In this document: positions 20,141 through 41,963 of the stretch, one piece after another | Layout: every line of letters starts with the position of its first letter | Numbering within the stretch: position 1 is the stretch's first letter | From: an uncultured Clostridia bacterium | Lineage (GTDB): Bacteria; Bacillota; Clostridia; Christensenellales; Borkfalkiaceae | Direction: 5' to 3' | Assembly (NCBI GenBank): GCA_947631005.1 | Contig: CANRJR010000001.1 | Location: 1 to 64,000 of the forward strand | Length of the DNA: 64,000 nt | Program-made: the position numbers and the translations under genes | Notes under the pieces: generated by a model | Database searches by the model: none | Seen by the model: the letters and a program-made list of their open reading frames with translations, nothing else | What the model was told of the DNA's origin: nothing

Positions 20141-20149
20141 TATTTCGCT

Positions 20150-20320
20150 GAAAAAGAGGAGCGGCAGAACATGAGTACCGCGCGCGGAGGGATCGCAGGA
20201 AATTCCGCCGAACGCGCACGGGAAAGGGTATCGCCGCCGAAACGCGGCGTCCCTGCCCGCCGCCGTTGGAAGTACGGGTCAATACCCGTGGTTCTGTCAC
20301 TGCGGTGGCGCGCTTTTTCG
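20150..20320 (+). ncRNA. Lysine riboswitch (L-box)
   Basis: gaaaaagaggagcggcagaac...agta...cgccgaaacgcgg...ggttctgtcactgcggtggcgcgctttttc; ends pair as gaaaaag/ctttttc and gcagaac/gttctgt; lies directly upstream of asd-dapA-dapB. Confidence 0.82.
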
Positions 20321-20342
20321 AATGTCCGGGGAAATGCTCGGA

Positions 20343-23236: not shown

Positions 23237-23312
<76 letters not shown>

Positions 23313-23352
23313 TAAAAAGAGAGAAACGCACAAGCGTTTCTCTCTTTTTATG
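23313..23352 (+). terminator. tRNA-Thr terminator copy 1
   Basis: taaaaagagagaaacgcacaagcgtttctctctttttatg. Confidence 0.85.
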
Positions 23353-23388
23353 TGATTAGAGGTTTTGGCTCGGACCGCCGACCCAAAG

Positions 23389-23488
23389 GGCTCCCGAAAA
23401 AAGACGAAGTATTTTTTCGGGAAAAGGAGCCGCCGAGGGCAAACAGAGCTTTTCGCAAGAAAAGCGTAAAAAGCACTCGTGCGGCGAC
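23389..23488 (+). repeat. Structured 100-nt core element (copy E1) after tRNA-Thr
   Basis: ggctcccgaaaaaagacgaagtattttttcgggaaaaggag...gagcttttcgcaagaaaagcg...gcggcgac; related 100-nt element at 41785. Confidence 0.75.
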
Positions 23489-23515
23489 GAGGTCCGAGTC
23501 CGCTCATCAGCTCCA
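23489..23515 (+). repeat. Defective tRNA-Thr 3' tail copy
   Basis: gaggtccgagtccgctcatcagctcca matches the tRNA 3' end but lacks part of the 5' T stem. Confidence 0.9.
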
Positions 23516-23555
23516 TAAAAAGAGAGAAACGCACAAGCGTTTCTCTCTTTTTATG
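23516..23555 (+). terminator. tRNA-Thr terminator copy 2
   Basis: Near-identical duplicate of the hairpin at 23313-23352. Confidence 0.85.
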
Positions 23556-23624
23556 CGATTAGAGGTGGGCTCGGACCGCCGACCCAAAGGGATTCCTCTT
23601 CCCTTATCCGCTCCAAACTGAAAT

Positions 23625-41070: not shown

Positions 41071-41147
41071 CGAGGAGTAGCGCAGTTTGGTAGCGCGCTT
41101 GGTTCGGGACCAAGAGGTCGTGGGTTCAAATCCCGTCTCCTCGACCA
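41071..41147 (+). tRNA. tRNA-Pro (anticodon CGG), CCA encoded
   Basis: CGAGGAG/CTCCTCG acceptor, CTTGG-TTCGGGA-CCAAG, GTGGG-TTCAAAT-CCCGT; upstream ttgcca-17-tataat. Confidence 0.95.
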
Positions 41148-41462
41148 TGAAAAACCGCCTAATGTATTTGGCGGTTTTTATTTGCCGAGGTCGTGGTTCT
41201 GCCGTCTCCTCGACCATGCCGTTCTATCTGATTTAGGTAGAACGGTTTTTATTTGCCGAGGTCGTGGTTCTGCCGTCTCCCCGACCATGAAAAGACCGCC
41301 TGTTATGTCGGGCGGTTTTTATTTGCCGAGGTCGTGGTTCTGCCGTCTCCCCGACCATGCCGTTCTATCTGATTTAGGTAGAACGGTTTTTATTTGCCGA
41401 GGTCGTGGTTCTGCCGTCTCCCCGACCATGCCGCACGGATTTTTGAACGGACGGCTTTTTTA
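41148..41462 (+). repeat. Array of four degenerate tRNA-Pro 3' tails interleaved with five hairpins
   Basis: gccgaggtcgtggttctgccgtctcc[t/c]cgaccatg at 41184, 41255, 41325, 41396 (spacing 71/70/71 bp), hairpins between. Confidence 0.95.
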
Positions 41463-41584
41463 CGTCCCCCATCTCCTGATGTCACGGGATCGTCGTTCGA
41501 GGTTTCCCGCGATGGGAATGCGGGGCGCAATCGGACGCGCAAAAAATCCGTACAAGAAAAATTTACGAAAGCAAACAAAATTGC

Positions 41585-41612
41585 TTGACACTTCCCGTTT
41601 TTTTTATATAAT
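41585..41612 (+). promoter_or_regulatory. Promoter of tRNA-Pro(AGG)
   Basis: ttgaca - 16 bp - tataat. Confidence 0.7.
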
Positions 41613-41627
41613 TAGATATGCTTTCAA

Positions 41628-41704
41628 TGAGGTGTAGCGCAGTTTGGTAGCGCGCTTGGTTAGGGACCAAGAGGTCGCGTGTTCAAGTCACGTCACCTCA
41701 ACCA
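41628..41704 (+). tRNA. tRNA-Pro (anticodon AGG), CCA encoded
   Basis: TGAGGTG/CACCTCA acceptor, CTTGG-TTAGGGA-CCAAG, CGTG-TTCAAGT-CACG. Confidence 0.93.
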
Positions 41705-41740
41705 CCAAAATCGCACGGATTTCTGTCCGTGCGATTTTGG
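41705..41740 (+). terminator. tRNA-Pro(AGG) terminator hairpin
   Basis: ccaaaatcgcacggatttctgtccgtgcgattttgg. Confidence 0.8.
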
Positions 41741-41759
41741 TGTTATGCAATTTGATTCT

Positions 41760-41774
41760 CGCGACCTCTTGGTC
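41760..41774 (-). repeat. Inverted 15-nt copy of tRNA-Pro(AGG) anticodon/variable-loop segment
   Basis: cgcgacctcttggtc = reverse complement of 41665-41679. Confidence 0.9.
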
Positions 41775-41784
41775 TATTTTGATA

Positions 41785-41884
41785 GGACTCCCATAAAAAG
41801 GCGAAGCATTTTTACGGGAAAAGGAGACATCGCCCGCAAAAGGAGCTTTTCGCAAGAAAAGCGTGAAAAGCGGGCTACGGCGAC
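41785..41884 (+). repeat. Structured 100-nt core element (copy E2) after tRNA-Pro(AGG)
   Basis: ggactcccataaaaaggcgaagcatttttacgggaaaaggag...gagcttttcgcaagaaaagcg...acggcgac. Confidence 0.75.
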
Positions 41885-41885
41885 G

Positions 41886-41917
41886 CGGTCGCGTGTTCAA
41901 GTCTCCCCCTCAACCAC
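41886..41917 (+). repeat. Defective tRNA-Pro(AGG) 3' tail copy
   Basis: cggtcgcgtgttcaagtctccccctcaacca versus tRNA aggtcgcgtgttcaagtcacgtcacctcaacca. Confidence 0.88.
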
Positions 41918-41963
41918 GAAGAGCCTAATTGAACGCGTAAGTGTTTGATTGAGGCTCTTTCGT
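41918..41963 (+). terminator. Hairpin after tRNA tail copy
   Basis: gaagagcctaattgaacgcgtaagtgtttgattgaggctctttc. Confidence 0.75.

What the first reader, a model, noticed from the sequence alone, without database searches (positions are those of the whole stretch)
41628..41963. tRNA-Pro(AGG) locus repeats the same design: terminator, inverted tRNA segment, core, defective tail, terminator
Seen: a 15-nt exact inverted copy (41760-41774) of tRNA nt 41665-41679, then core E2, then tail cggtcgcgtgttcaagtctccccctcaacca with a broken T stem, then a new hairpin. The order matches tRNA-Thr although tRNA and flank sequences differ, so the organisation itself recurs. All three tRNAs in the window therefore carry defective tail duplications.
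Basis: partly seen in the sequence, partly recalled or inferred. Interest (0 to 1): 0.75.

Follow-up and report, generated by a model that had tools for sequence, protein, structure and literature searches.

The report
tRNA-linked structured repeat units in Clostridia
Behind this bacterium's tRNA genes (and related tmRNA and RNase P RNA genes) sit short gene-less repeat units that fold like RNA and carry a spare copy of the gene's end, apparently a distant, more elaborate counterpart of the long-puzzling "tRNA-linked repeats" of E. coli.

Summary
Behind tRNA-Pro(AGG) lie, in order, a hairpin, an exact 15-nt inverted copy of the tRNA, a ~103-nt core, a defective copy of the tRNA tail and a second hairpin. 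It is not coincidence. The core is a genus-wide family (35 copies here; found in 45 of 46 genomes) with very strong covariation: two hairpins, folded on one strand, RNA-like. About half of sampled copies abut tRNA, tmRNA or RNase P RNA genes, sometimes on the 5' side as a mirror image. Inverted piece and tail pair, closing a stem around the core. At least two unrelated cores use the same slot, and other families of the order show the layout with other cores.

In two relatives this tRNA is followed directly by the window's second hairpin. So a unit with a new hairpin went in between, and the downstream tail is the displaced, decayed old gene end.

E. coli K-12 shows the same layout at lys, arg and tyr tRNA loci: the known tRNA-linked repeats (TLR; RtT, RF00391). 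This is therefore a TLR-like system with unrelated sequence, additional host genes, mirror-image forms and inverted pieces that also match the intact gene. How it spreads is unknown; reverse transcriptase, Y1 and IS110 enzymes are absent from this genome.

The parts
41585..41612 (+). sigma-70 type promoter TTGACA-16-TATAAT of tRNA-Pro(agg)
   Evidence: 12 of 12 consensus matches; consensus scan only
41628..41704 (+). intact tRNA-Pro(agg) gene
41703..41742 (+). first hairpin (terminator-like), new relative to sister species
   Evidence: 17-bp perfect inverted repeat; relatives G005/G032 have another hairpin directly behind the tRNA
41760..41774 (+). X': inverted copy of tRNA 41665-41679; 7 bp of it pair with the tail start 41887-41893 and close a stem around the core
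41784..41886 (+). core A: structured element, hairpin P1 plus long hairpin P2, ending CGACGC
41887..41916 (+). tail: displaced/duplicated tRNA 3' end with decayed T stem, ending CCA
41917..41962 (+). second hairpin = ancestral terminator of this tRNA
   Evidence: aligned with the hairpin directly behind tRNA-Pro(agg) in G005 and G032
23237..23312 (+). tRNA-Thr(ggt), second full example
23311..23352 (+). hairpin behind tRNA-Thr
23369..23383 (+). X' of tRNA-Thr (inverted 15-nt copy)
23387..23490 (+). core A behind tRNA-Thr (best model score, 114.3 bits)
23491..23515 (+). tail copy of tRNA-Thr 3' end (upstream T-stem 7 nt missing)
23514..23584 (+). second copy of hairpin and of X' behind the Thr tail
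41071..41147 (+). tRNA-Pro(cgg)
41148..41480 (+). array of four defective tail copies alternating with different hairpins; no core, no X'

Best explanation
This is a tRNA-linked repeat unit of the TLR type. A gene-less, structured element (core A) has attached itself to the end of a stable-RNA gene together with a spare copy of that gene's end. Shown: each full unit is [gene end - hairpin - X' - core - gene-end copy]. X' and the tail pair, so that core plus tail fold as a closed multi-hairpin RNA ending in CCA. The intact gene stays upstream, and the older tail and terminator lie downstream. Inferred: read-through of the leaky first hairpin transcribes the unit, as shown by others for the rrnB repeat in E. 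coli. Units spread by a copy-in process that duplicates the gene end and so spares the host gene; X' arises from copying the target across the cut or is kept for pairing. The enzyme is unknown.
For: Core family: 35 copies in the own genome and hits in 45 of 46 genomes of the genus. Covariation: 93.1% of cells paired, score 0.489 against 0.145 shuffled and below 0.09 slid. G-U versus A-C cells 62:12, so one strand folds. 86 of 169 sampled copies have tRNA/tmRNA/rnpB sequence within 60 nt, 85 of them at the core's 3' end. X' arms match the intact gene across the junction: left arm of 8 nt or more in 38% against 2.6% of controls, right arm 29% against 3.9%. In 19 tRNA loci with X' followed by a tail, the gap is never empty and holds core A, B or C in all but one. 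Ancestral hairpin found directly behind the tRNA in two relatives. Closing stem predicted and also in E. coli argV. Same layout with other cores in other families of the order and in E. coli lysQ/lysV/tyr/arg.
Against: No transcription data. No insertion event was seen between close strains. No shared enzyme was found. Core A does not match the E. coli RtT model, so common descent with E. coli repeats is unproven and the layouts could be convergent. About half of the sampled A copies are not at RNA genes, and samples are biased because loci were picked by similarity to A. Only part of the copies keep a long X'. The E. coli rrnB and rnpB units show no comparable X'.
Confidence: 0.62

Rival explanations
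1. Hairpin- or guide-directed insertion. X' is not a relic but a recognition element: a bipartite antisense to the intact gene around the insertion point, used by an unknown recombinase (RNA-guided, or acting on a folded single strand like integron attC) to insert the element.
For: In Pro and Thr units X' pairs on both sides of the junction with a 3-7 nt unpaired stretch near it; the upstream arm has no partner inside the unit, only in the intact gene. Unrelated cores share the slot. An element in the loop of a dispersed palindrome shows no target duplication.
Against: X' is almost never found away from its own target (only one copy with an RNA-gene match on the 5' flank alone), so it is not carried as a portable guide. 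No dedicated recombinase: RT, Y1 and IS110 absent from this genome; A-rich G001 and G005 have a single tyrosine recombinase, the one conserved in the genus.
Confidence: 0.2
2. Replication error: fold-back template switching at tRNA and terminator hairpins makes small inverted triplications (gene end, inverted copy, gene end), and dispersed repeats are captured at the junctions.
For: Order gene end - X' - gene end is that of an inverted triplication (compare the ODIRA model, PMC4689423, found). X' tracks the local tRNA sequence (Thr variant of G005). Hairpins are present at every site.
Against: In all 19 loci a recurring structured element fills the junction, never nothing; fixed order and fixed end at the element's 3' side.
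Confidence: 0.15
3. Decayed tRNA-targeted integrative elements: tail = attR, interior lost.
For: New gene end and terminator upstream, old ones downstream, as after tyrosine-recombinase integration.
Against: Interior is the same intact ~105-nt folded element in dozens of species with compensatory changes, not a random remnant; no integrase inside; also at rnpB and inside the P12 loop of RNase P RNA.
Confidence: 0.05
4. Chance similarity or old tandem tRNA duplication decaying in place.
For: Most tRNA genes here lack the structure.
Against: Shuffle controls, recurrence with unrelated cores, and recurrence across the order and in E. coli.
Confidence: 0.02

Closest known systems
tRNA-linked repeats (TLRs) of E. 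coli K-12, including RtT RNA (Rfam RF00391) and the rrnA/B/D repeats RrA, RrB, RrF
   Same: Directly behind a tRNA (or 5S rRNA) gene; ends with a copy of that gene's 3' end (18-19 bp in E. coli, PMC8144298); behind a first terminator at lysQ, lysV and rrnB; often in tandem; multi-hairpin core, with an inverted piece closing the stem on the tail.
   Different: No match to the RtT model in this window or in 60 genomes of the class; different core; X' reaches across the junction into the intact gene; mirror-image copies on the 5' side; also at tmRNA and RNase P RNA; the core is a dispersed repeat elsewhere too. TLRs are reported to have no known function except CsrA/Hfq binding of RrA/B/F (PMC8144298).
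113-bp repeats behind E. coli rnpB
   Same: Repeated copies of the rnpB 3' end plus terminator.
   Different: No X' and no comparable core detected; in this genus rnpB units carry core A and X'.
Short structured repeats inside rnpB of heterocystous cyanobacteria (STRR)
   Same: A short repeat inserted in an RNase P RNA helix (from general knowledge, not tested).
   Different: Core A in P12 is an RNA-like covarying element also linked to tRNA genes.
tRNA-targeted integrative elements (tyrosine recombinase)
   Same: Gene end regenerated at one side, displaced copy at the other.
   Different: No gene of any kind inside; ~200 bp.

Membership tests
tRNA-linked repeats (TLR) as a layout class | lies immediately downstream of a tRNA or rRNA gene | tested here: met
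tRNA-linked repeats (TLR) as a layout class | 3' end identical to the 3' end of the upstream gene (18-19 bp) | tested here: met
   25 bp exact for Thr and 17 bp exact for Pro(agg) with the rest decayed; up to 47 bp in relatives
tRNA-linked repeats (TLR) as a layout class | transcribed and processed with the upstream gene | not testable with these tools
   no RNA data for this organism
RtT RNA family (RF00391) | match to the covariance model above gathering score | tested here: not met
   no hit in the window; none in 60 genomes of the class including the own genome, while the E. coli control rings
MITE of a DDE transposon | terminal inverted repeats and a short target-site duplication | tested here: not met
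   core ends AGGGCTCC / GGCGACGA are not inverted repeats; filled versus empty palindrome shows no duplication
REP/RAYT or IS200/IS605-derived repeats | Y1 transposase in the genome | tested here: not met
   PF01797 absent from own genome and from A-rich G001, G005, G069
Retroelement or group II intron derivative | reverse transcriptase in the genome | tested here: not met
   PF00078 in 7 of 46 genomes, not in the own genome
IS110 bridge-RNA system | DEDD IS110 recombinase | tested here: not met
   over the cut-off in only 2 of 46 genomes, absent here
tRNA-targeted integrative element | own integrase gene inside the element | tested here: not met
   the unit has no gene; no recurrent gene near A copies
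Integron cassette / attC | IntI-type integrase and RYYYAAC/GTTRRRY boxes | not tested
   only a geometric resemblance of the bipartite X/X' hairpin was noted

The most novel reading that the evidence does not exclude
TLRs of E. coli and the A, B, C units of these Clostridia belong to one widespread class of gene-less elements that are inserted next to, or into hairpin loops of, stable RNA genes by a common undiscovered machinery that recognises the site through complementarity (X') or through the folded strand.
Probability: 0.2. Interest if true: 0.85.

Novelty: new variant of a known kind. Interest (0 to 1): 0.6.

Why it matters
E. coli tRNA-linked repeats have been known since 1978 without an explanation of origin, and mostly without a function. 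Here is a second, unrelated and far richer system: dozens of copies per genome, at least two unrelated cores in the same slot, tRNA, tmRNA and RNase P RNA hosts, mirror-image copies, and empty versus filled sites in related species. It shows that the layout is general and makes its origin testable by comparing close strains. It also matters practically: several contigs of this assembly end within about 250 nt of a tRNA gene, and the units could confuse tRNA annotation.

Tried and rejected
Chance: rejected by shuffled and swapped controls. Reverse transcriptase, Y1 and IS110 enzymes as mobilisers: absent from the own genome. A recurrent gene beside the cores: none. Viral origin: no hit to the A pattern in viral contigs. 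Rfam: no known family for the core. X' as a portable guide: nearly always found with its own target. Duplex energy of the two flanks was a weak discriminator and was replaced by exact arm matching. Papers on tandem tRNA tails, bridge RNA, palindromes in RNA genes and insertion hot spots gave nothing until the TLR paper.

Full report
What is there. Behind tRNA-Pro(AGG) (41628-41704) the window shows, exactly as described, a perfect 17-bp hairpin (41703-41742), a 15-nt exact inverted copy of tRNA positions 41665-41679 (41760-41774; here called X'), a ~103-nt core (41784-41886), a 30-nt tail copying the tRNA 3' end with a damaged T stem (41887-41916), and another hairpin (41917-41962). tRNA-Thr (23237-23312) has the same order, and behind its tail the hairpin and X' are repeated once more. 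tRNA-Pro(CGG) has four tails separated by different hairpins, without core or X'.

Chance is excluded. Against shuffled flanks, the best inverted match for Pro(AGG) is 15 nt (controls up to 11) and the best direct match 17 nt (controls up to 9). In the own genome, with other tRNA genes masked, 6 of 35 scored tRNA genes have a tail copy of at least 12 nt and 4 also have the inverted piece. Most tRNA genes do not have it, so it is a recurring insertion-like feature rather than a constant part of tRNA genes.

The core is a family. Eighteen copies align and fold into two hairpins, P1 and a long P2, with 17 of 25 pairs showing both-side changes. A covariance model finds 35 copies in the own genome and copies in 45 of 46 genomes of the genus, up to 63 per genome. 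Over 125 distinct copies, 93.1% of cells pair, with a covariation score of 0.489 against 0.145 in shuffles and under 0.09 when slid. The alignment was fitted to the model, which inflates these numbers somewhat, but the size of the difference leaves little doubt. G-U or U-G cells outnumber A-C or C-A cells 62 to 12 in a non-redundant set, so it is the strand as written that folds, as expected of an RNA. Named records of the family are uncultured gut Clostridia of rabbit, chicken and ruminants, including Candidatus Gallimonas and Coproplasma; no viral contig matched.

Where the core sits. 86 of 169 sampled copies have tRNA, tmRNA or RNase P RNA sequence within 60 nt, 85 of them directly at the 3' end of the core. 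The sample is biased towards good matches, so the fraction is only indicative. By Rfam, copies sit in the loop region of P12 inside RNase P RNA, behind the 3' end of RNase P RNA and behind tmRNA. On the 5' side of tRNA-Pro and tRNA-Leu there are mirror-image cases in which a 5' part of the tRNA, core A and an internal piece precede the intact gene.

X'. The 5' flank of the core carries a segment complementary to the target around the junction. Arms of 8 nt or more match the intact gene upstream of the junction in 38% of cases (2.6% in controls) and downstream in 29% (3.9%). In several Pro and Thr loci the two arms are separated by a short unpaired stretch near the junction. X' follows the local tRNA sequence: the tRNA-Thr of G005 has GGCAGTCC and its X' has the matching change. 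X' and tail pair and close a stem around the core in the predicted folds of the window units. The Pro fold is only moderately better than shuffles (z -1.95); the Thr fold is far better (z -7.45).

Order of events. In two relatives (G005 and G032) tRNA-Pro(AGG) is followed directly by the hairpin that in the window comes second. The alignment runs from the tail through the hairpin and beyond, and no other copy of that hairpin appears in the own genome. The simplest reading is that a unit [new gene end - new hairpin - X' - core] was added between, and that the downstream tail is the original gene end, now free to decay. An empty versus filled pair at a dispersed palindrome shows core A in place of eight loop bases, with no target duplication.

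Same slot, different cores. Among 154 tRNA loci, 19 have X' followed by a tail. The gap is never empty (63-214 nt). It holds core A in eleven, core A together with B in one, B in three, C-like sequence in three and another element in one (families A and B were recognised by clear sequence similarity, C by a looser one). In 77 tRNA genes from other families of the order, seven have tails and four inverted copies. G059, G074 and G070 show the full layout around other elements, the last one resembling core A at its start.

Comparison with the known. E. coli K-12 lysQ and lysV read tRNA-Lys - terminator - GATTCGAACCTGC (inverted) - element - ATCCTGCACGACCCACCA - the same terminator. lysT/W/Y/Z, argQ/Z/V and tyrT/V have the tail and element with shorter inverted pieces, and argV folds with X' and tail as closing stem. 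Rfam calls the tyr and lys ones RtT, RF00391. These are the tRNA-linked repeats, 22 in K-12 at ten loci, first described in 1978 and defined by the 18-19 bp gene-end copy; [quoted passage not shown] That paper's text has no 'inverted' or 'complementary to'. The window's core does not belong to the RtT sequence family. So the layout is that of a TLR, the element is different, and common descent is not shown.

Mechanism. The enzyme is unknown. Reverse transcriptase, Y1 and IS110 families are absent from this genome. The only tyrosine recombinase in A-rich G001 and G005 is the one conserved throughout the genus, and no gene recurs near A copies. I therefore commit to a TLR-type, gene-less structured element that spreads by an unidentified copy-in process which duplicates the gene end, with X' made or kept by pairing with the target, and with expression by read-through as in E. 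coli. The layout, folding, distribution and displacement are shown; transcription, mobility and the role of X' are inferred.

Noticed in passing
41148-41480: Array behind tRNA-Pro(cgg): four near-identical defective tails alternating with different terminator hairpins, one hairpin used twice; looks like repeated terminator replacement.
   Followed up: partly
L137:3638, L170:192, L173:659: Core A lies inside RNase P RNA (P12 loop region) in three species, with the ribozyme otherwise complete by Rfam.
   Followed up: partly
L022: Two core A copies plus a B element stand behind the 3' end of the tmRNA gene of the own genome.
   Followed up: partly
L068, L084, L134: Tandem arrays of X'-core-X'-core (G033) and of core directly after core (G069), nearly identical copies, suggest recent amplification.
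   Followed up: no
L141-L145, L148: A dispersed palindrome (TGTCATTTCGAC..GTCGACATGACA) carries core A in its loop in many copies of G005.
   Followed up: partly
G000 contigs C4, C7, C9, C12, C13, C21, C22, C29: A tRNA gene lies within about 250 nt of the contig end, as if tRNA-linked repeats break the assembly.
   Followed up: no
L036: Behind tRNA-Arg(acg) and its B unit lies a partial 5' copy of the same tRNA gene.
   Followed up: no
L366: E. coli rnpB is followed by three repeats of its 3' end plus terminator, without a core or inverted piece.
   Followed up: yes
20146-20323: Lysine riboswitch upstream of a 435-aa reading frame.
   Followed up: no
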